A stretch of DNA of 64,000 nt, from positions 124,001-188,000 of the forward strand of contig BROG01000265.1 of NCBI GenBank assembly GCA_030159075.1, given 5' to 3'. The DNA is from Atrina japonica (taxonomy: Eukaryota; Mollusca; Bivalvia; Pterioida; Pinnidae). The notes under the pieces were generated by a model. That model was not told the DNA's origin. It did no database searches and saw only the letters and a list, made by a program, of their open reading frames with translations. The position numbers and the translations under genes were made by a program. Within the stretch, counting starts at the first letter, position 1. Each line of letters opens with the position of its first letter. Shown here one piece after another: positions 7,601-64,000 of this stretch.

Positions 7601-8962
7601 AAGGCCATATATATTATATCTCATATATTAAAAGGCCCAATATTCCTGTGTAATAACAATATCAGCGATTTATTAAACACTACCGGAACTTCTTGCAAAC
7701 ACATATTTTATCAAGTTTATAAACTTCAACCCCATAACCCCTCTTTAGACCCACCATGCCATACTGAACGGAGAATATATGTAGGTATCGGTGTCAACAT
7801 ATTTGAGTTTGATAAAATATTATCACAGAATCATAAACATTTTTTAAAAATAATTTCAAATAGTTTTTCTTTTTAACTAAGTATTTTATTTATCGTTGGT
7901 GTATTGGACAAAGTGTTTTCTCAGTGAAGTCGAATTATCACATCTTTCGATGTTAAAAACCACAGGTCGACCTCCAGCTCCACCGCGCAATGCATTTCAT
8001 CCCGTTTCCATTGTATACAATTATTTATTTTCAAAATGTTTTCAAGATTCTAACATTATGTTTAGGTTACAGTAGGTTTCATTCTGTACTCCAACTTATA
8101 CGGCCAGATCCTCATCAATGCATACGCGATACCAGCCTCGCATCTAGCCTACATGTTGAGAAATATGTGTACATGTACTTTTAAAAAATCAAATTGCTTT
8201 AATATCTCGTAGTATTTTTCAAAGATGTACCGTGCAAGAGCACTTTTAGCACACTAGAGGTATACAATCATTTGTGTTTACAGTATTTTATTGTTTATAG
8301 CATTATTCTTCATTGTTATAAATATTCTGAAAGGAAAAAAAAAAGAAAAAGGAACAAAAGTCTTAGTGCTAAAAAATCATTACAAATATTTGCGGGTCAC
8401 GATGTTAAGTTAAACCGTATTAGATCTTTAAAATAAATGAATATTAACGAGATCTATGATATCTATACACATTATTTTTACTAAAAATCATCTATTTTTT
8501 TACAGAAAGTCCATAAGTAGATAATTAAAAAGTTTTTAAATTTTTTCGTTGAACGTAAATTTTCAAAACATAAAATCAAGCCAACAAGATGAAGCGCTGT
8601 GTGTAAATCAATCGCCGACACATTTTTTTTGTGACATAACTTAAACCATTGTTTACGTCAAGATTCAGAAAAGTAAGACAAGACCCTCTTTTCCTGTGGG
8701 CTGACACATACAAATTTTTAATATTTCTGAAGTTTTCTTTAAAGGCCCATGACCGTTTAAATAGACCAACATGAAATATCGTAAAACGTTTTCCGAATCA
8801 CAAATTATACAATTTAAAGACATACTAATCAAAACTACACACTTGCACTTGCACTGCAATTAGTCAGAACCTATATGGCTCTGTGGAATGTTGGTAAACT
8901 CGGACCCATATCAATTCTTACCCGTCTCAACTCGAATCCTCTTTGGCTAAGTCATGCCTACT
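7593..8962. other. No gene recognised
   Basis: Open frames here are short and low in complexity. 8707-8750 resembles an internal piece of MITE family 1 (TATTTCTGAAGTTTTCTT). Confidence 0.4.
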
Positions 8963-21165: not shown

Positions 21166-21208
21166 ACAAGATGTAGGCCTACGGCTGCGCAGTCACAGAT
21201 GTATTGTC

Positions 21209-21396
21209 CGATTCACATAAGATGGCGTGGCGGAGTAACCTTTTGATTATCATACGGATGATTCTACTCACTTTTCGGTTATGACAAACTGCACGGGAAA
21301 AGCGTTTTATTCTTCACTGGATACTCTCCTATGTATGGTGACAAGTAGGAACGATTACTCTAGCCAGTGTAATTTTAATATTATGCTTTATCAGTA
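21209..21396 (-). repeat. Family-E repeat, minus orientation
   Basis: Contains GTATTGTCCGATTCACAT, AAGATGGCGTGGCGGAGTAA and GGTGACAAGTAGGAACGAT, reverse complements of the motifs in the plus copies. Confidence 0.65.
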
Positions 21397-21410
21397 GTTA
21401 TAGGCAGTTC

Positions 21411-21730
21411 CCTGGCGTGCAGAATCGAATTTGTCCGCTAGGGGGCGCCACTAGTGGCGCTGTTGATGACGTCATCAGAATGCTGGGTTCTGATTGGTCA
21501 ATTTGAATCTGCACGCCAGAGAGCCGCCTGTGACGTCATAACGGAAGTGCTTCATACCGGAAGTGAGGTCATACCGGAAGTGAGGTCATGTCGTCGTGGC
21601 AATAAGGAGAAAGAGCCAGTCGTTGAGCTTGGAGGTGTGTCTATGACCGGAAGTAGATGACTGTGGGGCGGCCATCTTGGATAACGAGCCAATGAGAGCC
21701 TTCGTTACAAGGGTTTGGGGTCACGTGAGT
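21411..21730 (+). promoter_or_regulatory. GC-richer block with dense promoter-type motifs
   Basis: Visible motifs: a CTCF-type match CCGCTAGGGGGCGCCA (21435-21450), CRE TGACGTCA at 21467-21474 and 21531-21538, CCAAT boxes (21491-21496 reverse, 21689-21693 forward), four ETS sites of CGGAAGT type (21543, 21557-21565, 21573-21581, 21647-21655), a YY1-type GCGGCCATCTTGG (21668-21680) and an E-box CACGTG (21722-21727). No TATA is seen. A 26-bp inverted repeat (CCTGGCGTGCAGA..., 21411-21436 and 21503-21528) frames the first part. The density suggests a TATA-less promoter or a mobile-element LTR-like regulator. Activity is inference; motif matches alone do not prove it. Confidence 0.45.
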
Positions 21731-22690
21731 TCACGAGAAGTCAACGACTTAAACTAGAAGTTGGGTTTTTCCAGTTTTGGATTGAGAGTGAATCTATTTT
21801 TAGAGCCGAAACTTTCCAGGTTTGTGAAACTAATAGTAGGTGTCGACACAGTCGAAGTGGTTAACGATCCTGTATGAAGTGCGCAAGCGCGGGAAGCGGT
21901 AGGCCGAGCTTGTAAACGTGAGTCAAGCTTGAACATGTTATCCTTGTACTAAGACTTCTAGAGTTACGAGTATGTACAAAGGGATATCACTCTGTATAGA
22001 CTGTAATGATAGGACAAAGGGAGATCACTCTTTATATACTGTATGAGTAGGACAAAAGGGAAATTACTCTGTATAGACTGTATGGGTGGAACAAAGGGGA
22101 GATCACTGTGTATAGACTCTATAGGTGAAACATCACTCTGTATAGACTGTAGAACAAAGGGAGATTACTCTGTATAGACTATAGGGATGGAACAAAAGGG
22201 GAGATTACTCTACATGGACTGTATGCACTACACCAGAGAGGGAGGGTGGGTAGTGAAACAGGAAGTACAGGGAGGATAGCCATCTTGGCTATGGAATCAT
22301 GGGATATTTAGTTTTTTTTTTTTTGCAGAGACCGACTAATCTCACGGCAGGACAGAGATACATAGAACATGAAAGTGTGTAATGTTCTCAAAGTTTGCAA
22401 AGTGATCAAGTGTGTGCCGTTCTAAAAGTTTGCCAAAGTGATCAAGTGTGTGTCGTTCTCATATTTCAAAGTTTGCAACGTGTGCAACGTTCTAACTTAT
22501 GAAGTTTCAAAGTGACACAAGTGACAAAGTGACACAAGTGAAAAAGTGACAAAAGTTGTGAAGTATGAAGTTGTTCACTTACGTCGTTTCAACAAGTATC
22601 AAAGTTCAGACAGTGAAAACAGTATCTGTATTATTTTATAGCGTTTTGTACTTCTGTATATAAAATAAAACATTAAACACTCACCCAGAA
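21731..22690 (+). ncRNA. Candidate noncoding transcription unit with minisatellites and poly(A) signal
   Basis: Downstream of the motif block there is no coding frame but two tandem series: ~38-bp units with ATCACTCTGTATAGACTGTA at about 21979-22225, and units with GTTCTCAAAGTTTGCAAAGT at about 22370-22570. An AATAAA lies at 22664-22669. Promoter-like block, noncoding body and poly(A) signal together would fit a short noncoding transcript or a solo LTR-like element. Nothing shows transcription. Confidence 0.25.
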
Positions 22691-22936
22691 GATTTTTTCT
22701 GACGATGTTGACTCTTCGTGCTTCGGATGCCAAATGAGCTCTCAGAGGTCTAACTGAACTTATTCTCTAGTTTTTTAAAGTTACTATTTTTAGAATTGAC
22801 TAGTTTGAATTTCTATTTTATAAAATTGTATCGATCAAGAAAAAGAACTAGTGAATGTTCACATTCACTTGCTATAGGTTAGACTTACCACTACAATATA
22901 ACAGAACACATACAAAAACTGCATACTTTCAGTTTA

Positions 22937-22976
22937 GGTCTCTTTTCGTGTAAGTTGGGTGACCCTTAAAAGGGCC
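22937..22976 (-). terminator. Histone-type 3' stem-loop and downstream purine element, minus strand
   Basis: On the minus strand, 22976-22961 reads GGCCCTTTTAAGGGTC: a 6-bp stem (one G-U pair) with a UUUA loop, followed by ACCCA and, about 15 bases on, GAAAAGAGA. This matches the replication-dependent histone mRNA 3' end (stem-loop, ACCCA, HDE bound by U7 snRNA). The stem starts 27 bases after the stop of the 72-codon gene, the usual spacing. Its partner in opposite orientation is at 27036-27079. Confidence 0.75.
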
Positions 22977-23002
22977 GTTTGTTTTGGGGTTTTAAAAAAC
23001 CC

Positions 23003-23221
23003 TTAAAGGCACCGGCAGCACACGATCTTCTTCGGCCTTCTGGCTGCTGCCGCACGGGCCGCAGCAAAACGACAAAACTTCTCCATCCCGGCCTTCTGCC
23101 TCTCGAAATAATCCCATTCCTGGGCTGCCGTCTCCAACTTGGCAATGATGTATTGGGGCTTACTCGCCCAAAACTTCTCACTATCTAGAAACATATTGGT
23201 TGTGCTAGTTGGCTGCACCAT
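23003..23221 (-). CDS. Small basic-tailed protein of the viral block, 72 aa, unknown function
   Basis: The start at 23221 is chosen because a TATA box (TATAAAAA, 23282-23275 on the minus strand) lies about 54 bases upstream. The longer in-frame start at 23299 would lie upstream of the TATA. The N-terminal half is mixed and probably helical (EKFWASKPQYIIAKLE). The C-terminus is Ala/Arg-rich (RFAAARAAAARRPKK) and ends in a CCRC motif. A histone-type stem-loop follows 27 bases after the stop. The protein is not a histone: no histone fold is visible. A basic tail would suit a nucleic-acid- or virion-core-binding protein, but that is inference. The frame is intact, compact and GC-richer than its surroundings. 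Confidence 0.6.
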   Translation of the reverse strand: MVQPTSTTNMFLDSEKFWASKPQYIIAKLETAAQEWDYFERQKAGMEKFCRFAAARAAAARRPKKIVCCRCL

Positions 23222-23274
23222 TTTCTCTGTTGTGTCTTCTGAATTGAAGCGCAGTGAAAAGAGACGCACACGGC

Positions 23275-23282
23275 TTTTTATA
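23275..23282 (-). promoter_or_regulatory. TATA box for the 72-aa gene
   Basis: TATAAAAA on the minus strand, about 54 bases before the ATG at 23221. Confidence 0.6.
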
Positions 23283-23680
23283 TGAGCAGTACAGCGCACG
23301 CGACGTACTCCGTCTCGTCAACTTTGACCTCTTTGATGATTGGTCTATGCGTCGTTGGCAACATGATTCCACTAATGAAAAAGCAAAGAGTGATAGACGC
23401 CTATGAGAAATCAATCAGTCTAAGAGTGATAAAAATAAATGGAAAAAAAGTCAATAAAAACCATGGATCAATAGAATGTGACTATGCCGATAAAAAAATG
23501 AGACTACTCTGGAAACCCAGAGGTGGGATCATATGGACCGGTCACACCCAAGAAAACAGAACCTCACAATTTCTAATCGAACGAAAAGTGGCTCAACATT
23601 TCACTATGAAACAGATACCAAATCAGATTATTCGTGATACTAAAGAGAAGCTACGAAAGATTAATGTGAACTTTCTTTAG
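23282..23680 (+). CDS. Basic protein of unknown function, up to 132 aa
   Basis: The frame is intact and ends at TAG 23678-23680. The first ATG (23282) overlaps the divergent TATA and gene, so internal starts at 23336, 23363 or 23375 are likelier; the part beginning LMKKQRVIDAYEKS is well-composed protein sequence. The C-terminal two thirds is Lys/Arg/Ile-rich, with a WKPRGGIIWTGH segment and a helical QIIRDTKEKLRKI end. No family recognised. The same frame remains open after the TAG (from 23681 through about 23830, rich in Lys/Arg), so a stop mutation or a readthrough extension is possible. It converges on the zinc-knuckle gene (23824-24393, minus). Confidence 0.45.
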   Translation: MSSTAHATYSVSSTLTSLMIGLCVVGNMIPLMKKQRVIDAYEKSISLRVIKINGKKVNKNHGSIECDYADKKMRLLWKPRGGIIWTGHTQENRTSQFLIERKVAQHFTMKQIPNQIIRDTKEKLRKINVNFL

Positions 23681-23823
23681 GGAAAAGACGATGTTCACCT
23701 GAGACGGATTGTGCTTCTCAATTCTGTTTTGCGGTTTGGTAGAGAAAAGAGAAAACGTAAGCAGATGGACGAGAAGTGTTTGCCGAAACAGAAAACGTAT
23801 TTACATGATAACAGTACAAAAAA

Positions 23824-24393
23824 TCACTTCTGTTCGGTTTCCACTTTCACTTTCTTGGTGGATTTTCCTCCCTTCTTGAGCATCAAGTTGAGTTTACGTT
23901 TGACTCCTGTTGAAGTCTGTTCGGGACATTCATAAGCCAAATGACCTGACTGATGACATTTATAACATTGGTCCGATTGACGAGATTGATTTGCTACTTT
24001 GTTCTCAGGTTCTACTCTTACTGATGTTGTTGCCGACTCGTTATTCTTAGGACATCTAGGAGACCAATGTCCAATTTCACCACAAATGAAACAAGGATGA
24101 GTCTGTGGGGAAGCCTTATATTCGTAACCCATATACGATGTTCTGACTTCTGGCTGTAGTTTATCATTCAATTCTTTCAGACTAGCTGTAATGGTCGTGA
24201 GTTCTTCCCTCATTTTCTGTAATGTGGATAGGAAGGCATCACGTAACATTCCCTTGGCCGCATCATTTTCTTGTTTTTCATCCAACTGGTCTAAAGTTTT
24301 GAGAACTTCATCAAAATCATCAGCCCCTTCTATGTACGGTGTACAATTAGGTGAATAATTCGGGTGCGTCTGAGACAATCCTTGAAAACTCAT
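23824..24393 (-). CDS. Double zinc-knuckle (CCHC) protein with coiled coil, 189 aa
   Basis: Start at 24393 (MSFQGLSQTHP): a TATA box (TATAAA, 24446-24441, minus) lies about 48 bases upstream. The longer ATG at 24435 is only six bases from the TATA and so is unlikely. About residues 30-85 are charged and helical (DEVLKTLDQLDEKQEND, KMREELTTITASLKEL), a probable coiled coil. Two perfect C-x2-C-x4-H-x4-C knuckles follow (CFICGEIGHWSPRC and CYKCHQSGHLAYEC), with a Lys-rich tail (GVKRKLN, KKGGKSTKKVKVE) that could be a nuclear localisation signal. Zinc knuckles bind single-stranded nucleic acid; the combination suggests a nucleic-acid-binding accessory or packaging protein. A retroelement Gag is an alternative, but no Gag or Pol partner lies alongside. 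The frame is intact. Confidence 0.6.
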   Translation of the reverse strand: MSFQGLSQTHPNYSPNCTPYIEGADDFDEVLKTLDQLDEKQENDAAKGMLRDAFLSTLQKMREELTTITASLKELNDKLQPEVRTSYMGYEYKASPQTHPCFICGEIGHWSPRCPKNNESATTSVRVEPENKVANQSRQSDQCYKCHQSGHLAYECPEQTSTGVKRKLNLMLKKGGKSTKKVKVETEQK

Positions 24394-24440
24394 GTTGATG
24401 ACTGATTGAAATGATGTTCGGTGACTACACTTCACTTTAC

Positions 24441-24446
24441 TTTATA
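24441..24446 (-). promoter_or_regulatory. TATA box for the zinc-knuckle gene
   Basis: TATAAA on the minus strand in context GGGTATAAAGT. It decides the start at 24393. Confidence 0.55.
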
Positions 24447-24536
24447 CCCGTTCTTCTTATTCTATATTTAGACTCGTTCACGTCAGAAACTTGTTTACCC
24501 CAGAATAGAGGCTCCACACAGGGTGTTTTTTTATTT

Positions 24537-24914
24537 TTATATCACCAGTTGACTGAAAGCACAATCTTGAGACCAACGTCGATGTCCTGTATAAGCATTA
24601 CCGGACCATTCCAAATCTTTTAAACAGGCGCCACAACAAAAACACTGAACGTGGTCACTGTTCCCTAAATACACAAATCCTGCTCTGGCTAATTCTGTCT
24701 GTTTAGGTCCCGGTAGATATTTTGGCCAATGATCTTTAAACGTCAGGTACCTGGATCCATACGTACAAAAATTAGGTAAGGCTAAAGTTATTCTTAATTC
24801 CTGATGAAACGATAACCCTCTGACGGTAGCAGGTCTTAGTTTAAAAGTTGTCACACCTGTCTCCTTTCTGTAGGTGGACTCCTTGTCACTTCTATTAGGT
24901 TTGCTCTCAGTACA
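24537..24914 (-). pseudogene. BIR-domain (IAP-type) fragment without its own ATG
   Basis: The frame is open from a TAG near 24917 to the stop at 24537, but the first candidate start is a GTG at 24854, not an ATG. The domain is a complete single BIR: a LTFKDHWP-type core, AGFVYLGNSDHVQCFCC, and the zinc ligands in the exact spacing C-x2-C-x16-H-x6-C (CFCC, then GHRRWSQDC). BIR domains of IAP proteins bind caspases or adaptors and block apoptosis, and invertebrate DNA viruses carry them as host-derived genes. No RING follows. The upstream repeat ORF (24851-25039) ends at the same place in another frame, so either a frameshift separated the two halves or the start lies in a spliced exon. A host IAP fragment cannot be excluded. 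Confidence 0.6.
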
Positions 24915-25039
24915 CTATCCACTTCTACCCGATGTGTTTGTGGTACACTATCCACTTCTACCCGATGGGTTCGTGGTACACTATCCATCATGTCTCGGTT
25001 CATGGGAACACTATCTATGACGGTCTGACCTACATCCAT
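24851..25039 (-). CDS. Short repeat-rich ORF abutting the BIR frame
   Basis: The ATG at 25039 opens a 62-codon frame whose middle is three near-copies of an 11-residue unit, DSVPRTHRVEV, encoded by 33-bp repeats (about 24885-25015). It ends in TGA where the BIR frame runs open in another phase. It may be the N-terminal part of the BIR protein separated by an indel in the repeats. Alone it has no recognisable function. Confidence 0.3.
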   Translation of the reverse strand: MDVGQTVIDSVPMNRDMMDSVPRTHRVEVDSVPQTHRVEVDSVLRANLIEVTRSPPTERRQV

Positions 25040-25126
25040 CGACGATTAAAATAAAGTATCCATACTTGATGTTCTTTCCATCGTGTCTGAGAGTAAATTG
25101 TACCTGATGTGGATTCCCATCGATAA

Positions 25127-25696
25127 CTAATACCCAGTGGGACATCGAGTCATTAGCTGACATGGAGTCTTGGTCTTATTACTACTATAAGGTTTTAAAT
25201 GATTCTCGTAACACTGAGTCGATATGAATGTCCCCTGGCAATGTGTACACTCTATAGGTGTTATCCTGTTGTCGGGAACACAGGACCACGGTGCAAAACA
25301 ACGAAAGCAGCATTGAGGGCATCGGTGATCTTCTACATGATTATAACCCACATCGCAACGGTCACAATAGTAATTATATTCCAAGAGTCCAGACATAGAT
25401 ACTATACAGTTGTAATGGTGATCATCGTATAAGACGTGAATGTGGGCCCCGGATCCTACACCACTATACAGTACATTTAATGTCAATCGTTTTGCGTTGG
25501 TATTCAGTTCGTAGATTTTCAAACGGTAGTGTGGCAACAACGCCATAAATCAAAGTTTTCCAATATTGTTGCCAATTTTTGTACTTGTCTCCATCTCCAA
25601 GTCCAGGTTTCTAGCAAAGAAAATGTCCAACTACAATAGCTCGAGCTAAACAGGTCTTGTGTTTATTCTTGATCTGTATGAAACTTTTTTTCTTGT
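25127..25696 (-). pseudogene. Polinton/adintovirus-type PolB N-terminal region, zinc-binding part, broken
   Basis: The intact frame (25546-25127, 139 codons) contains a VLYDDHHYNCIVSMSGLL segment, then a Cys/His-rich module (YYCDRCDVGYNHVEDHRC, CCFRCF, ECTHCQGTFISTQCY). From memory of the family, this pattern follows the first ~250 residues of PolB-like proteins of Polinton/Maverick and adintovirus type in many invertebrates. An in-frame TGA sits two codons before its ATG. The interval 25547-25696 carries a further conserved-looking stretch (KKKSFIQIKNKH, LARAIVVG) in a different frame, so at least two frame breaks occur. The exonuclease and polymerase motifs expected downstream are absent; the next sequence is the repeat/BIR ORF. 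It is non-functional as a polymerase. Confidence 0.55.
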
Positions 25697-26236
25697 TCAG
25701 AAAGACTTTTTTATCAAAACTGAGATGATATTTTCGTTTTCCACCCCGCTACCTACAGGTTGTATGACATGGATCACTGACAGGATGGTAGACCCATCTT
25801 CGATTCTAAAATTTTCATTACTCTGTTGTACTTTCTCAATTTTCTCCATGAGTAGATCAGCATTCAGGTCTTTGGCATCCGTAAATTCTACCCACACTTC
25901 ACTTTTTAAAGATGGATGATGTATATTGACTTTCATCTTATCCCGATCTTCACACTGTAGTTTGTTCTTGATAGAAGTCAACATCTCAGATACCAAGTGT
26001 ATGGCATCTTTAGAAAAATGTTTAAACTTGACTTGGTACACATTCGAGGCCGTTTTAAATTTGCGTGATTTACGTTCACTCAGGGTGTCTACTTCATAGT
26101 AATCACTGTAATCGGTGAGTTGTCTGTTTGCATTAAATCCATCACCCCATTGATCTCTCTGGTGAGCCTGTCTTTGACTTCTCGCCTGCTCTTGTCTTTC
26201 ATTTAACAATAAATCAAAGTTGGGTAAATTAGCCAT
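25697..26236 (-). pseudogene. PolB-like N-terminal region, first part, 179 codons
   Basis: The start at 26236 (MANLPNFDLL) opens a frame with a Gln/Arg-rich leader (NERQEQARSQRQAHQRDQ), then DYYEVDTLSERKSRKFKT, HHPSLKSEVWVEF, IEKVQQSNENFRIEDG and VIHVIQPVGSG. These blocks resemble the conserved N-terminal domain that precedes the zinc-binding part in Polinton/adintovirus PolB-like proteins (recognised from memory, not searched). The frame ends at 25697 just as related sequence continues in another phase, so the stop reflects an indel. As no catalytic domain remains, it is a relic or at best a short accessory protein. Confidence 0.5.
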
Positions 26237-26454
26237 TCCGTGTGTATGCTTCCGTTGTCAAATCTAAAATGAAGTACGGTAACTGTATACATGTATTTAT
26301 AATAAAAAGGAAATAACTGTATAGATACTCAAACGAAGTATCATCACACATATATATTCATAACGCTATGTTTTATTCTAGTTTTATGTTTACAGGTTCA
26401 TAAAACTGAATTTATTTTATTTCGTTTTATTTTCATATAGAAATACTAGTGACA

Positions 26455-26605
26455 GTATTTGTCTAAAAAACAGGTGGCCAGATGTCAAAAACAGCTGGTC
26501 AGATGCCAAATGTCAAGATGTCAAAAACAGGTGGCCAGATGTCAAAAACAGGTGGCAAGATGCCAAGTGTCAAGATGTCAAAAACAGGTGGCCAAATGTC
26601 TAGAC
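26455..26605 (+). repeat. ~21-bp direct repeats with E-boxes, upstream of the 101-aa gene
   Basis: About five copies of GATGTCAAAAACAGGTGGCC. Each has a CAGGTG (once CAGCTG) E-box. They lie 40-190 bases upstream of a TATA box and have the layout of an enhancer repeat. The overlapping 63-codon frame is only the repeat in translation. Confidence 0.8.
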
Positions 26606-26619
26606 GGGGAAAAATCAAT

Positions 26620-26651
26620 GCGTCATGCGCACGTCATAAACTCTATATAAA
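26620..26651 (+). promoter_or_regulatory. Core promoter of the 101-aa gene: CRE-like elements and TATA box
   Basis: TGCGTCATGCGCACGTCATA (CRE-like halves) is followed by TATATAAA (26644-26651), 36 bases before the ATG at 26688. Confidence 0.65.
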
Positions 26652-26687
26652 CTAGTACTGTCTGAGTCTCGGTATTAGTTCATCATC

Positions 26688-26993
26688 ATGGATAACTCAT
26701 CCGACATGGAGATGCAACCTGAAGAGAGAAACATGAGAATCATTCTTACACGGAGGACACGTATTGTAGTAAGGCAACGCAGCCCGATAAATTCTGGTAG
26801 GACCCCTGCGACAATTACTACACAACAGGAGGAACCACCTAGACCCGACCTTTCACTCCCAGTACCTGTGCAATACGTACTAGCTCAGGAAGCATTAGCA
26901 AATCTTCGACAACATAAGACAGAGATAAATCGACTGATGATAGAGAAAGAAGGAGAAGTTCGTCATTGGCGACGTCTACTCGACAGATATTAG
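26688..26993 (+). CDS. Small basic protein of the viral block, 101 aa, unknown function
   Basis: The frame is intact, preceded by a TATA box and enhancer-like repeats and followed 43 bases after the stop by a histone-type stem-loop. The N-terminus is acidic (DNSSDMEMQPEE), then comes a strongly basic segment (ILTRRTRIVVRQRSP), a Pro-rich linker (EEPPRPDLSLPVPV) and a charged C-terminal helix (LANLRQHKTEINRLMIEKEG, HWRRLLDRY). No family recognised; no histone fold. Together with the 72-aa gene at the other end it forms a symmetrical outward-facing pair with the same type of 3' end, suggesting common S-phase-linked, non-polyadenylated expression. Confidence 0.6.
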   Translation: MDNSSDMEMQPEERNMRIILTRRTRIVVRQRSPINSGRTPATITTQQEEPPRPDLSLPVPVQYVLAQEALANLRQHKTEINRLMIEKEGEVRHWRRLLDRY

Positions 26994-27035
26994 AGTCTCT
27001 CTCTCTCTCTTATTCAGCTTTTCTGAGCAATCAAT

Positions 27036-27079
27036 GGCCCTTTTAAGGGCCACCAACTTATTCGAAAAGAAACCAAGAG
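27036..27079 (+). terminator. Histone-type 3' stem-loop and HDE-like purine element, plus strand
   Basis: GGCCCTTTTAAGGGCC (27036-27051): a perfect 6-bp stem with a UUUA loop, followed by ACCAACTTA and AAAAGAAACCAAGAG (27065-27079), the position and composition of a histone downstream element. It aligns with 22937-22976 in inverted orientation over about 40 bp. Confidence 0.8.
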
Positions 27080-27361
27080 GGGTTCTTTTCATTAATACTA
27101 CCAAAACAACGAAATAAATCTCATATTAAAGATATATTTTGTAGTCATATCTATGAAACAGAACCAAAAGGGGGTCCTGTATATATGCACACAAATAAAT
27201 TAAAATCATCTAAGAATATTAGATCTATTAAAATGAAACCTAATGGTGAAGCTGAGCATTGCCTGCACATCTATGCATGTCATTTGAAAGGGTTTCCTTC
27301 CTTCAGATAACAAAACAAGCATTGTAAGAGAACATTGCACAAAACATCAGACAGTGACATA

Positions 27362-28058
27362 GTTAAATCTCTATAACTTGGCGGGTTGGCGTCTTGTGAA
27401 CCCTTTCTTGACCTGAACGAGTTTAAAGTTTAGGCAATAAAGCATAACATTAGAAGTACAGTGACTAGAGTAATCATTCCTACTTGTCATCATACATAAG
27501 AGGGTATCCAATGAGAAATAAAACGTTTTTCTCGTGCAGCTTGTCATAATAACCGAAAGGTGCGTAAATCATCCGTACGATAATCAAAAGGTAACTCCGC
27601 CCGCCATCTTATGTTAATCGGACAATACTTCACATGGTGCACAGAGAAAGATCCATATTCGCTCAAAATCAGGATAATTTGTTGATTTGTTTAAAACATA
27701 TCTCGATGACATAAAGACAAAAGAAAAGGAAGAGAGGGGGAAAATGCACAAGGAAAAAATTCAAACCATGAATAGTTTCATACACGCTATATCATCATCT
27801 GCCTGAGCTCTGCACCTTCATCCAGTACAGGTGGTACCAGTAGGGGATCATGAACCTTGAATCCCTCGCAGTCAAAAGCAATAATTTTAAAAATATTGTG
27901 TTCTTCTCTTTGTCTGTATATTGTCAGATCCACATAACGTGGCATGGTGTAATTATTATCATTGAATTACCTAAGCTTTAAACTCGTCCAGGTCAAGAAG
28001 GGTTCACACGACTTCACCTCGCCAGGTTATATGGATTTTACTATACAGTTGGTATTTT
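27362..28058. repeat. Family-E pair in opposed orientation (long-TIR element)
   Basis: A plus copy (27365-27635) and a truncated minus copy (27930-28055) face each other; the outer ends (TATAACTTGGCGGGTTGG and its inverted partner CGCCAGGTTATATGG) match. The ~300-bp interior has no gene. Confidence 0.6.
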
Positions 28059-56312: not shown

Positions 56313-56322
56313 TATAATGATA

Positions 56323-56590
56323 GAGTAAAATCCATATAACCTGGCCGGTTGGAGTCTTGTGAACCCTTTCTTGACCTGGGCAAGTTTAAAAATTTAGGTA
56401 ATAAAGCATAACATTGAAATTACACTGACAAAAGTAATCATTCCTACTTATCACCTTACATACAAAAGTATTAGTGAGGAACAAAATGTTTTCCCGTATA
56501 GCTTTTTCATAACTGAAAAGTTAGTAGAATCATCCGTACCATACTCTAAAGGTTATTCCACCCCGCCATCTTACGTGAATCGGACAATAT
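56323..56590 (+). repeat. Family-E repeat, plus orientation
   Basis: One of the best preserved copies: ATCCATATAACCTGGCCGG to GTGAATCGGACAATATT. It is immediately downstream of a SINE. Confidence 0.7.
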
Positions 56591-59335: not shown

Positions 59336-60162
59336 ACTAAAAGGATGGCAATTTATATACCATTAACCTTAATATTAGTTTTAATTCTTGTCCTCGTTTA
59401 TGATCGAAAAAGATTATAGACCCTATAACTTTAACTGCGGTCCTGTAACATTGAGTGGCAAAACGATACAGATTCCCGCAAAATTACATAAAAAAAACAA
59501 TCAATTACTATAACGACATCTATTAGTCCGGGAGCTAGAAGGGTCAACCGTGCACCCCCCACACAAACCTCCGAACCAATATTTTTCTGAAGCCTCATGA
59601 CCCCCTGATCACGAAAATGAATGTTAACATTGCGTAAGTTGGGACGAACGTCCGGTTGTGACGTCATGAATATTGCCGCCCTAGTGAAATTTACCCAAAA
59701 TGTGAAAAAACTCATAAAATCGTCATGTGTTGACCAAAGTTAACAAATGAGGTATCAAAATGACCGTAATGGAATAACAAACATATCTATCAACAAAAGA
59801 AACTACTATAAAAAGATTTATTGCTTAAAAAATGAATTTATATCGATTTTGAGGTCAAAATTGAACATTTTCACAAAATAATTGGCATTATTTTTTAGGG
59901 TCAAATTTCTTCCATGCCTGAGAGAGGTTTTTTGAACCCCATTCAATCAACATAAAACACAGATTCATGCCAAATTTTCAGGAGCGGTCAAACACAACTT
60001 CATGAAGACGGACGCCATCATAAAACCTAAAGGAAATACAGTCTTAGCTTTCTTGTTTCATTTGGTTAGAAAAGCAGTCTATTATATATCTGTTCTAAAT
60101 ATTGCATTTTTGTATGTTACAGATCAAGCATATAGTGATAGGTTCTAATACATACAACGATA
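59336..60162. other. 5' flank of the long ORF; no gene
   Basis: Less AT-rich from about 59430. Contains TGACGTCA (59658-59665). It could be the 5' untranslated part of the mobile or multicopy unit that follows; no terminal repeat was recognised. Confidence 0.35.
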
Positions 60163-63100
60163 ATGATGCAAAGTTCCTCTGATACCCAGGATCCCCCAAA
60201 AGATGATGGCCCGCCTTCAAAGAGAAGGTGTGGTGAAAATTGTAAAGCATCAACGTCCGGTATGAAACCAATATGTGTCATCCATATTCAGGGATTAAAA
60301 TGTGGACAACTGCAGTTATTCACGAGCATGAAAGATCGCAACAAAACACTGGACAAAATCAAAGAAGTACGATCTCTTAGACTTTGCCAACCAGTCGGTT
60401 CTATACATAGAATGCAACAGGTGTGTGACCTCATTCCCGAAACTTATACAGACTCTGATGGATATCATCGTGAATGTTATCAGAGGTTCCCCATGAACCT
60501 TAATCGCCTTAAGGTTCCTCCAGACACGTCGGAAGCAACATGTTCATCTAGAACAAGTCGGCGATCTTCAAATGACAGTGATACCATTATCTTCAAGCCC
60601 AATTGTATATTCTGTAATTCCGAAGGGCGCAAGAAAATGAAGGTGAAGGGTAGCTGGACAAGTGAAGGAACCTCTAAGTTTGAGTTTGATGGTTGGAAAC
60701 GAGTTCTAGAAGTAGCAGAGAAGAAATCCGATGAACAACTCTTGACTAGAATAAGAGGACATGATTTGTTTGCATGCGAGGCGCAATTTCACAAGAGCTG
60801 TAGAGCCAAGTACATAACAGACCCAAAGCAGTGGAGAAGTACTGGTGACGAGAAGAGGACACACCAGGAAAAGCTTGAACTGGCACATAGAACATCGTAT
60901 CAGAATGTATGTGAGAAGATTAACAAAGGTGTGATATGCGACAAAAAGATTGTCACAATGTGTGAGCTTCTTCGGGTCTATATTTCGAGTCTGCAAGATA
61001 CGGAGTTCGCCAATCCTAACTATCGCAGTGAGAAACTGAAGGTCAAGCTGGCAAAGGATGTCAACTATTGTGGAAAATTATCATTCTGCCAACTTGATAA
61101 GCAGACAAAGTTTACCCCATGCATTGTATACAGCTCTGACATTGATGTAAACCGTGCTGTCAAGAGTGCATATGCACTAGGTTCCACTGACATGATTAAG
61201 GATGTCGCCACTCACCTACACCAATTGATTCTGCGTAGCTTTGAACAATCGACAGAACTGAAATGGCCACCAACATCAACAGACTTAGAAAACAGTGAGG
61301 AGATACTCCCACTGCAGCTGAAGAAGTTCTTAAGTTATGTGATCACTGGGACACCAACTGCTGACACGTCACGAGCCAACAGGCTTGTACTTTCTATTGG
61401 CCAAGACATATGCAGGGCCGCTACCAATGAAGAATGGAAATTACCAAAGCATGTGCTTATCTGTATGACAATGCGACATCTGTTCAGAAGCAAACAACTG
61501 ATAACCTTATTGAACAGAATGGGACACTCAGAGAGTTACTCCTTCTCTCTTGAACTTGAGACAGCTATTGCTCAGGCTGTAGAAGAAACATCAAGTCTTC
61601 TGTCCACCCAAATTGTTCGTGATCCTGATGCTCCATCGGTGTTCCATTCAGAATTTGACAACTTTGATCAGCTCTTGAACGATCTGACAGGCATGGGGTC
61701 TATTCACACTGCTCATGGTATTATGATGCAGGACATCGAAGGAAACCCAGAGCAACAGGAGGGTACTCGTCCTGAAATCCCGGCCGTCAGCAGAAGTGGA
61801 GCGCGTTCTCTGAAAGCAGATCAAGTCGGGAATCTTCCTGAATGCTATGTGACACAACGTAAGAGTCCATCCCTCACAATCCAACAGTTGACATGCCCTT
61901 GAGGCGAAGAAGCCCTAAAACGCGCCATGAGACGCAATTTTGTCTGGATTCTCATTCGCATGATTCGTACAGCCTCACAGGACGTACCTGGTTGGTCAGG
62001 CTTCACATCCGTAACTGGTAGGCCACCAACAAATCTCACCACCATCGACTATTACCCAGTCATCACCCAACCCATCACCGATTATAAGACCGTGCAAGAA
62101 TGTCTGAGATATGCTGAAGAGGCAACACATGAAGTAAACCAGCAGTATGTCATAACAACCTTCGACTTGGGAGTCTGCATGAAGGCATACCCATTGCTTT
62201 GGAACAACCCTAAACGGTATGAGAAGCACATTGTTTTAATTGGTACCTTCCACCTCGTGTGTGCTTATTTGAAGATGGTGGGGAAGAAGATGGATGGCTC
62301 TGGTTTATCTGACATCCTACTTGAAGCAGGGCTGATTGTCTCGGGTTCATTGCAAGGTGTGATATCCGGAAAGCACTATGACAGGGCAATGCACTGCCAT
62401 AAGCCCATGCTGGAGTGCTTGGAACGGTTGTTATTGGAACAATACATGGCTCACCAAGATGAACTGGAACTGCTCTCTTCCATCCCAGCGGACTCGATGA
62501 AGAAGTTGGATGATTTGTTACAATCACTCACAGAAACCAAATTATGGCTAGTACTCTCTCTCGTACAGGCAGTGAAGCACAATGACTTCCTTGCATATGC
62601 ACACTGTTTACATCTCATGACAGACATATTTTTTGCATTCGGTGGTCAGAACTACGCCCGATATCTCACATACTTCTCCATCTTCCTGGCTAACATTGAG
62701 GTATCTCATCCCGGAGCAACTGATTTCATCAAGCGGGGAGCCATGAGTGTCGCCCGTTCCTTCATACCCGGAAACCGCTGTGCCGTCGACAACACTATGG
62801 AGGAAACCTTTATGAGACATGCCAAATCTCATGGTGGGGCTGGTGGGGGTGGTTTTGGTGTTTCAGGGGTTCTCAGCAACCATGATGCATACCAAAGATG
62901 GGTGCGAACAACACACGCGAGATCCCAGTATGTCAACACGACAATGAACATAGCTGACATGCTAACAGCTAACAGCCAAAGTGGAACAATGCATCGTGAT
63001 ATACGACCCGCGGAGATCCTGAAAAGTGAGAAATGCGTACGAAAGGCAAAGGAGGCAGTTGAAAGCTTCATCAATCCATTTATAGTTGGCGACCAAGAGA

Positions 63101-64000
63101 AACTTATCAGTCTTTCATCTGGAGCTGCAGCCACTGAGATTATAGCAACTGATGTTCTGGGCGCAGAAAAGTTAGGAAAAGAGGCACAGAAAGCTTTCAT
63201 AAAAGACCGGCTGGAGAAGAATGAAAACTTCTTTGAACCAATAAAGCGAATGAATCTGAGAACGCTTGGTGACATGAACAAGAAGATGAAAGTAACAACG
63301 GCAAACAACAAAGTAGTCCAATATAAGCAACAAGGAAATATTGCCTTCCAACTATTTGTGAAATGCCAAAGCCAGGGCTTGCAGTTGGACATGAAGGAGC
63401 TGATGACGTACCCGCTGACCCCTGTCCCATACAGCATCGGAACAGCAGATGGATTTCTGGCAAAGACAGACAAATCGAAATCTTTCCAGTATCTGACAAA
63501 AGAATGTGAGGATGCACCGGTTCCATCGGCTGAGTCAGCACTTGTGGTCTATGATGGTAATGCCTACTTCTACTACCTCAAGGAGATACCAGCGAATTTC
63601 AGCTTGATCTGCAACAAGATTTTTGGCATGATGTCAGCGACAACAGATGCGGTGTTCAGTACAGATATGTATACTCCCAATTCTGTCAAATCCATGGAAC
63701 GTGAGAGAAGGGGCTGTAGTGAGAAGCTCATTGTAAAGTGACCAAGCACAAAGAAACCTCCTGATTGGAAGCAGTTCCTGACAAATGATGACAACAAGAC
63801 ACAATTCATCAATCTCCTCTGCAAGACGTGGAGTAATCATTCATATGCCAATAAGCTCCTTGGAAGAAAAGTCATCATCATATGTGAAGGAGCTGCATAC
63901 CAGCTGACGTCTGAAGATGGGAAAAGCACAGCGAAACTGGAGATCGAAACTCTACGCTCGTCCCAAGAAGAAACTGATTCCAGAGTAGTTCTGTACTGCA
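60163..64000 (+). pseudogene. Long intronless ORF of a multicopy invertebrate family, two in-frame TGA codons, runs off the window
   Basis: One frame runs from ATG 60163 to the window end, interrupted only by TGA at 61900-61902 and 63739-63741. Each sits where CGA (Arg) would fit (CCT-TGA-GGC, AAG-TGA-CCA), as expected of CpG decay. N-terminus: NLS-like PPSKRR, then two Cys/His modules ending in H-x2-C (GYHRECYQRF; CIFC...AQFHKSCRAKY). Middle: an acidic/Gln segment. Second part: TTFDLGVCMKAYPLLW, LIGTFHLVCAYLKMVGKK, GNRCAVDNTMEETFMRHAKS and SHGGAGGGGFGVSG; the end has SSQEETDSRVVLYC. From memory these motifs belong to a large family of uncharacterised intronless ORFs in corals, molluscs and other invertebrates that behave like transposable-element genes. 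The class is not established. The GC content is clearly higher than in the flanks. Confidence 0.6.

What the first reader, a model, noticed from the sequence alone, without database searches (positions are those of the whole stretch)
22937..27079. Compact viral-type gene block bounded by inverted histone mRNA 3' ends
Two small, outward-pointing, TATA-driven, intronless non-histone genes lie at the two ends of a virus-like block. Both end in a histone-type stem-loop (GGCCCTTTTAAGGGYC) plus ACC(C)A plus a purine element, 27 and 43 bases after their stops. The two 3' ends form an inverted pair of about 40 bp. I know of no described Polinton/adintovirus-type element that uses histone 3' processing for its terminal genes. 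It would link viral late or structural expression to S phase and give non-polyadenylated mRNAs. Alternatively the pair is simply the element's terminal inverted repeat that happens to look like a histone 3' end.
Basis: partly seen in the sequence, partly recalled or inferred. Interest (0 to 1): 0.9.

Follow-up and report, generated by a model that had tools for sequence, protein, structure and literature searches.

The report
Virus-like element imitating histone genes
A repeated virus-like DNA element in an animal genome ends five of its small non-histone genes with the special signal that animals normally reserve for histone genes, which suggests that it ties its gene expression to the host's DNA-copying phase.

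Summary
The window copy is a broken Maverick/Polinton-derived element: AGTAGT terminus at 21393, right arm lost after about 27075. Fuller copies measure 12.7-13.6 kb, with 6-bp target duplications in 4 of 4 examined. Both outer genes end in a histone stem-loop plus purine element (Rfam 37.1 and 30.5 bits, cut-off 34). A 35-nt form occurs 1,262 times in this genome, reversed control 0. Fuller copies have five such genes: A, B, C and P1 at one end, P7 at the other; the window lost A, B and the end of C. None matches a histone in Pfam. One of 13 adintovirus-like contigs from elsewhere has the same signal after a zinc-finger gene. Stem-loops are not the element's ends; 1.2-1.6 kb of arm follows. 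No AWTAAA lies within 140 nt of the stop in 59 P1/P7 copies; the window's truncated P7, not among them, has two. Most likely the host histone machinery cuts these mRNAs. Cleavage and S-phase coupling are inferred; host histone ends, U7 and transcripts could not be examined.

The parts
21393..27075 (.). Broken copy of a Maverick/Polinton-derived element; right arm missing, interior deleted
   Evidence: AGTAGTTATAGGCAG at 21393; same terminus in other copies; P7-side homology stops 37-39 nt after the stem-loop start
21393..22936 (.). Outer arm on the P1 side, no long ORF (longest ATG ORF 64 aa)
22937..22948 (-). Purine-rich downstream element (CGAAAAGAGACC) of P1
   Evidence: conserved in copies
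22961..22976 (-). Histone-type stem-loop of P1 (GGCCCTTTTAAGGGTC)
   Evidence: 30.5 bits, below the cut-off of 34; coordinates
23003..23221 (-). P1, 72 aa, intronless
   Evidence: at least 150 matches in the genome (capped); pN/pS 0.32
23275..23284 (-). TATA box of P1
   Evidence: TATAWA upstream in 28 of 30 copies
23624..23800 (+). Remnant of gene C (residues 29-87 of 89), with an in-frame stop; its stem-loop is lost
   Evidence: stop
23824..24393 (-). Protein with two zinc knuckles (CCHC)
   Evidence: Pfam zf-CCHC 8.9e-11
24537..24914 (-). BIR-domain protein, 5' part uncertain
   Evidence: Pfam BIR 5.5e-19
25127..25546 (-). Piece read as part of the PolB gene (cysteine-rich part)
   Evidence: position between the PolB N-terminal piece and the deletion; similarity recalled, Pfam weak
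25697..26236 (-). Piece read as the N-terminal part of the PolB gene
   Evidence: position; similarity recalled; a PolB core lies on the same strand in another copy
26644..26651 (+). TATA box of P7
   Evidence: TATAWA upstream in 28 of 29 other copies
26688..26993 (+). P7, 101 aa, intronless
   Evidence: at least 150 matches in the genome (capped); pN/pS 0.35
27036..27051 (+). Histone-type stem-loop of P7 (GGCCCTTTTAAGGGCC) followed by ACCA
   Evidence: 37.1 bits; coordinates
27064..27074 (+). Purine-rich downstream element (GAAAAGAAACC) of P7
   Evidence: conserved in copies

Best explanation
This is a deleted copy of an abundant Maverick/Polinton-derived element that carries a set of five small non-histone genes (A, B, C, P1 at one end, P7 at the other; P1 and P7 with TATA boxes), each ending in a histone-type 3' processing signal: stem-loop, ACC, about 12-nt spacer, purine element. 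The host's histone machinery (SLBP and U7 snRNP, from established knowledge) most likely cleaves the pre-mRNAs just after the stem-loop, giving short non-polyadenylated mRNAs that accumulate mainly while the cell replicates DNA, when the element's own DNA polymerase could use the nucleotide pool. Shown: the signals, their position after ORFs and in their sense direction, conservation, repetition, and one independent case in another element. Inferred: cleavage, SLBP/U7 use, S-phase coupling, and the role of the proteins.
For: Rfam Histone3 hits in the window; 32 hits at or above cut-off in 20 of the 60 other P7/P1 loci held: at P7 in 8 of 10 P7 loci, at P1 in 8 of 10 P1 loci, and 16 at A, B, C. 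The signal follows five different ORFs, 5 to about 45 nt after the stop. Motif 1,262 places, control 0. Pairing kept in 99% of cells of 16 stem-loops that I chose, with one C-G to U-A double change in gene C. P1 locus diversity: purine element 0.022, ACC and spacer 0.031, stem-loop 0.061, P1 coding 0.18-0.38, arm 0.05-0.14. AWTAAA within 140 nt of the stop in 0 of 29 P7 (window copy left out) and 0 of 30 P1 copies; TATAWA upstream in 28 of 29 and 28 of 30. Proteins constrained: pN/pS 0.35 P7, 0.32 P1, 0.48 A, 0.43 B. Contig L077, with PolB, rve integrase and TBP, has Histone3 at 35.8 bits, E 9.5e-7, 28 nt after a C2H2 zinc-finger ORF.
Against: No transcript data. Host histone 3' ends, U7 and SLBP were not compared. 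The window's P1 stem-loop is below the Rfam cut-off. The P1 stem-loop (0.061) is no better conserved than the arm just beyond it (0.05-0.06), and at P7 the 20 nt before the stem-loop are as conserved as it is (1.2 against 1.1%); exchange between the two similar arms may help. Some copies have broken stems or loops outside the consensus (L011, L024, L037, L038, L044, L045, L062). Covariation rests on one pair, and 19 of 500 shuffles match it. Gene C pN/pS is 0.73, and B is open over its length in only 7 of 30 loci. Only 1 of 13 related contigs had the signal; the 12.7-kb L082 did not. L077 has AATAAA 71 nt after its stem-loop and the window P7 has AWTAAA at 27113 and 27125, beyond its breakpoint, so a poly(A) fallback is possible.
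Confidence: 0.8

Rival explanations
1. The stem-loop motifs are DNA or replication elements of the arms (for example hairpins for replication or integration) that only resemble histone 3' ends.
For: P1 and P7 copies lie next to arms that are alike at both ends, and the two form an inverted pair.
Against: Three more copies of the signal sit inside the element, each just after an ORF and in its sense direction. The order stem-loop, ACC, spacer, purine element is kept at all five gene ends in nearly every copy seen. The motif follows the direction of the gene.
Confidence: 0.1
2. Captured host histone 3' UTRs: the element picked up histone gene ends (or whole histone genes that then diverged), and the signals persist as passengers without function.
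For: Signals look fully histone-like; small genes in divergent pairs recall a histone cluster.
Against: The five signals differ from each other in spacer or purine element yet each is kept between copies; coding regions of four of the five are constrained. No histone match in Pfam for any of the five; models of P1 and C are plain helices of low to middling confidence.
Confidence: 0.06
3. Dual 3' ends: the histone signal is used in dividing cells and downstream poly(A) sites otherwise, so the mRNAs are not strictly S-phase restricted.
For: L077 has AATAAA downstream of its stem-loop and the window P7 has AWTAAA beyond its breakpoint; some human histone H2B genes make polyadenylated mRNAs (start of abstract of PMC3661734 in the listing).
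Against: No AWTAAA within 140 nt of the stop in 29 other P7 and 30 P1 copies; sites further out were not examined.
Confidence: 0.25

Closest known systems
Maverick/Polinton elements
   Same: AGTAGT termini, inverted arms, 6-bp target duplications, DNA_pol_B_2 polymerase
   Different: No integrase recognised in the pieces read; five genes with histone-type 3' ends
Adintoviridae (PolB-C of Rhodactis coral adintovirus)
   Same: PolB core 43% identical to that record; a roughly 390-aa protein recalled as shared with Polinton-type elements
   Different: No capsid set recognised in the pieces read; no mention of histone-type 3' ends found in the paper searches
Replication-dependent histone genes of animals
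   Same: Stem-loop, ACC, purine element; for P1 and P7 a TATA box, for P1 a CCAAT upstream (27 of 30); small intronless ORFs; divergent pairs
   Different: The proteins match no histone family in Pfam
Hairpin 3' ends of giant viruses (recalled, mimivirus)
   Same: Viral mRNAs that end at hairpins
   Different: By recall those mRNAs are polyadenylated at the hairpin and lack the histone consensus, ACC and purine element
Adomavirus and tailtomavirus Histoid genes (passages of PMC11071296)
   Same: Link of midsize DNA viruses, one from a clam, with histones
   Different: There the protein resembles histones; here only the mRNA end does

Membership tests
Histone-type 3' end (RF00032) | 6-bp stem, 4-nt loop of the histone consensus | tested here: met
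   the window's P1 site is below the Rfam cut-off
Histone-type 3' end (RF00032) | ACC after the stem and purine element about 12 nt downstream | tested here: met
Histone-type 3' end (RF00032) | Cleavage by U7 snRNP with SLBP, no poly(A) tail | not testable with these tools
   no transcript data; U7 search unanswered
Maverick/Polinton | Termini AGTAGT in inverted repeats (recalled) and 6-bp target duplication | tested here: met
   (4 of 4 copies)
Maverick/Polinton | PolB of DNA_pol_B_2 type | tested here: met
Maverick/Polinton | Retroviral-type integrase | tested here: inconclusive
   none recognised in the pieces read of two copies; about 1.2 kb, placed inside PolB, not read
Adintoviridae | Capsid, packaging ATPase and protease genes beside PolB | tested here: inconclusive
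   none recognised in the pieces read, but Pfam also failed to name the ORFs of L077 and L082 that I read as capsid proteins; not filed as an adintovirus
Histone proteins | Histone fold or Pfam histone match | tested here: not met
   no histone family for P1, P7 or A, B, C (weak other hits only); helix lists of the P1 and C models do not show the histone fold, confidence modest, no fold search run

The most novel reading that the evidence does not exclude
A Polinton lineage has assembled a counterfeit of the animal histone gene cluster: five small, mostly basic, several cysteine-tailed proteins, four of them in divergent gene pairs, all with histone 3' processing, made as a set in S phase to coat or condense freshly replicated element DNA or to interfere with chromatin assembly, and the same trick arose or persists in other adintovirus-like elements.
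Probability: 0.3. Interest if true: 0.95.

Novelty: new variant of a known kind. Interest (0 to 1): 0.85.

Why it matters
Histone 3' processing is generally held (recalled) to be nearly private to replication-dependent histone genes. A mobile, virus-derived family that puts it on five other genes would show that a DNA element can tie its expression to S phase through the mRNA end, would give a natural test set of hundreds of variant SLBP/U7 substrates, and would explain why such mRNAs could be missed by poly(A)-selected sequencing. It also points to a histone-cluster-like gene layout outside histones.

Tried and rejected
Rejected: the 113-nt inverted pair 21279-21391/27437-27549 as the element's terminal repeat; the same repeat occurs at 56318-56589 and 329-598, and the element's terminus lies just beside it at 21393. 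Rejected: stem-loops as element ends. Rejected as relatives: five IMG/VR contigs with the bare stem-loop pattern look like phages by their ORFs (my reading), and none reached an Rfam cut-off. IMG/VR scans with a PolB N-terminal piece and the PolB core found no relatives, with the PolB alignment one weak one. P7 found no relative in the protein collection; a P1 alignment found 7, all on contigs of 1,390 bases or less. The models of P1 and C were too weak to be worth a fold search.

Left unanswered: host histone 3' ends, U7, capsid-bearing helper elements in the same genome.

Counts to read with care: matches are capped at 150 and the 30 loci taken from each are the best-scoring, so intact copies are over-represented in pN/pS and in the conservation figures; pN/pS of A, B and C uses only the 16, 7 and 11 open, gapless copies of 30 loci. 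The P7 figures and the counts leave the window copy out (29 of 30). One search lists 27 P7 loci; three of the 30 were not entered because a strict pattern did not find their stem-loop. The gene A count cross-matches the P1 signal and is not used; one search shows an A-type minus-strand signal in 18 of 30 P1 loci, others being absent or cut by the locus end.
Full report
What was checked. The two stem-loops are in the window as described. Rfam's Histone3 model scores 27031-27075 (+) at 37.1 bits, above its cut-off of 34, and 22936-22981 (-) at 30.5 bits, below it. They stand 42 nt after the stop of a 101-aa ORF (P7, 26688-26993, +) and 26 nt after the stop of a 72-aa ORF (P1, 23003-23221, -). 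The two ends form a 43-bp inverted pair, 86% alike.

What the block is. The exact 16-mer occurs 423 times in the 832-Mb genome and the reversed control 0 times. A 35-nt motif of stem-loop, ACC, spacer and start of the purine element occurs 1,262 times with up to 3 mismatches, control 0. P7 and P1 each have at least 150 matches, the cap, and in copies such as those on C283, C571, C204 and C330 they lie about 10 kb apart, pointing outward. Comparing 3' flanks shows homology running 1.2-1.4 kb past the P7 stem-loop and ending sharply at ACTACT in 22 of the 27 loci compared, the window copy being one of the five exceptions. Four copies whose left ends I fetched begin with AGTAGT and carry the same 6 bp on both sides: TTTCTC, ACTGTA, TACATC and GCTGTT, 4 of 4. 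By these coordinates the four measure about 12.7 to 13.6 kb. In the window the left terminus is at 21393 and the right arm is gone after about 27075. AGTAGT and 6-bp duplications are, by recall, the marks of Maverick/Polinton elements.

Gene content. Pieces of two copies (L069, L070) hold, all on one strand, the N-terminal part of the zinc-knuckle protein, a BIR protein (2.4e-22), an AT-hook protein (4.2e-6), a protein of roughly 390 aa that I recall from Polinton-type elements, and a PolB core (DNA_pol_B_2, 1.5e-21). The PolB core has 652 relatives at E 1e-10 or better; the top two, unnamed, are 86 and 82% identical, the nearest named are oysters and a pearl oyster at about 50-59%, and an adintovirus PolB is 43% identical. 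The host is therefore probably a bivalve, but its name is not given. No integrase, capsid, ATPase or protease was recognised; this is weak for capsids, since Pfam did not name such ORFs in L077 or L082 either, and about 1.2 kb placed inside PolB was not read. Several copies, the window copy among them, have broken genes.

Five histone-type ends, not two. In 20 of the copy loci held, Rfam found 32 Histone3 hits at or above cut-off: at P7 in 8 of 10 P7 loci, at P1 in 8 of 10 P1 loci, and 16 more at three new places next to P1. A script located the ORFs: gene A (about 64 aa, opposite to P1), gene B (about 119 aa, same direction), gene C (about 89 aa, opposite), then P1. So A and B diverge, B and C converge with their stem-loops about 230-260 nt apart, and C and P1 diverge. 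tblastn finds A, B and C in 24, 27 and 28 of 30 P1 loci, but open and gapless over 90% only in 16, 7 and 11. The 35-nt blocks of B, C and P1 are in 26, 25 and 28 of 30, and that of P7 in 27 of 30 P7 loci.

Are the signals maintained? Around P1, mean pairwise diversity is 0.022 in the purine element, 0.031 in the ACC and spacer and 0.061 in the stem-loop, against 0.18-0.38 in the P1 coding region and 0.05-0.14 in the arm; the 40 nt just after the purine element are at 0.05-0.06, so the stem-loop alone does not stand out from its near flank. Around P7 (29 copies) the stem-loop departs from the majority in 1.1% of cells, the 20 nt before it in 1.2%, the five bases of and after ACC in 8.3% because of a variable Y, the purine element in 4.3%, and the stretch beyond in 9-10%. 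In 16 chosen stem-loops 99% of pair cells are standard; gene C shows C-G replaced by U-A on both sides, but this is one pair, matched by 19 of 500 shuffles. P1 and P7 arms resemble each other, so exchange between arms may help to keep the outer two alike; that would not reach A, B and C. The proteins are constrained: pN/pS 0.35 for P7 (30 copies), 0.32 for P1 (30), 0.48 for A (16), 0.43 for B (7) and 0.73 for C (11), the last being weak. AATAAA or ATTAAA lies within 140 nt after the stop in 0 of 29 P7 copies and 0 of 30 P1 copies; the window P7, left out of that count, has such motifs at 27113 and 27125, beyond its breakpoint. A TATAWA lies upstream in 28 of 29 and 28 of 30, a CCAAT upstream of P1 in 27 of 30.

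An independent case. An alignment of 17 PolB proteins found 13 contigs, apparently mis-binned in bacterial assemblies. Rfam scanning of these and one IMG/VR locus at E up to 1 gave one Histone3 hit, in L077 at 8335-8380, 35.8 bits, E 9.5e-7. L077's PolB is 43% identical to the adintovirus PolB that headed the query; it also has an rve/chromo integrase, a TBP homologue (1.9e-27) and other ORFs that I read as viral. The stem-loop GGCCCTTATCAGGGCC, ACCCCA and a purine run follow, by 28 nt, an 89-aa C2H2 zinc-finger ORF, the last sizeable gene I see before the contig end. By eye this protein is unlike P1 and P7. An AATAAA lies 71 nt after the stem-loop. The other 12 contigs, including the 12.7-kb L082, had no such hit; many are fragments.

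How it most likely works. From established knowledge of replication-dependent histone genes, SLBP binds such a stem-loop and U7 snRNP pairs with the purine element, and cleavage after ACC leaves a non-polyadenylated mRNA that is stable in S phase. The parts needed in cis are here, in order and at normal spacing, so I think it likely that the host machine cuts these mRNAs. That would give the element a burst of small proteins when DNA is being made. A, B, C and P1 end in a basic stretch with one or more cysteines (KCFLCHGI, RRCYCQY, KRFCT, VCCRCL), which would suit DNA-bound or condensing proteins, but this is a guess. None of the five matches a histone family in Pfam; models of P1 and C are simple helices with modest confidence.

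What is known. Searches of open papers for Polinton with histone and stem-loop, histone stem-loop with virus and SLBP, adintovirus, Maverick with bivalve, and related terms listed no title or abstract on histone-type 3' ends of viral or transposon non-histone genes (listings seen; of PMC11071296 and PMC10294476 only passages). The library lacks most subscription journals, and the adintovirus description I looked for was not held, so this is a limited statement. PMC11071296 describes histone-like proteins in adomaviruses, one from a clam; that is a different link.

Verdict. A real, repeated and conserved feature. Function in vivo is untested.

Noticed in passing
P1 coding region in L039-L068: P1 is an island of high diversity (0.18-0.38; synonymous 0.57) between a conserved TATA region and conserved 3' end, although the flanks of the same copies are closer; it may be exchanged between subfamilies or be under pressure to vary.
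   Followed up: partly
L077:7189-7755 (-) and L082:11565-12140 (-): Two adintovirus-like contigs encode TATA-binding protein homologues (Pfam TBP 1.9e-27 and 1.5e-36).
   Followed up: partly
L006, L007, L008: Outward stem-loops about 5 kb apart (L006/L007) whose upstream ORFs are diverged, broken sequences, in L006 P1-like by eye: perhaps a non-autonomous derivative.
   Followed up: partly
21198-21391, 27355-27631, 56318-56589, 329-598: A dispersed repeat, into one copy of which the element may have inserted (the left flank up to 21391 matches the repeat).
   Followed up: partly
60142-63741 (+): Two long adjacent stop-to-stop frames of 586 and 612 aa, not examined.
   Followed up: no
26466-26600: 57-nt tandem repeats just upstream of the P7 TATA box; similar repeats are seen upstream of P7 in other copies.
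   Followed up: no
P1 3' UTR, shortly before the stem-loop: A second small hairpin (GGGTTTT..AAAACCC type) precedes the P1 stem-loop in the window and in several copies.
   Followed up: no
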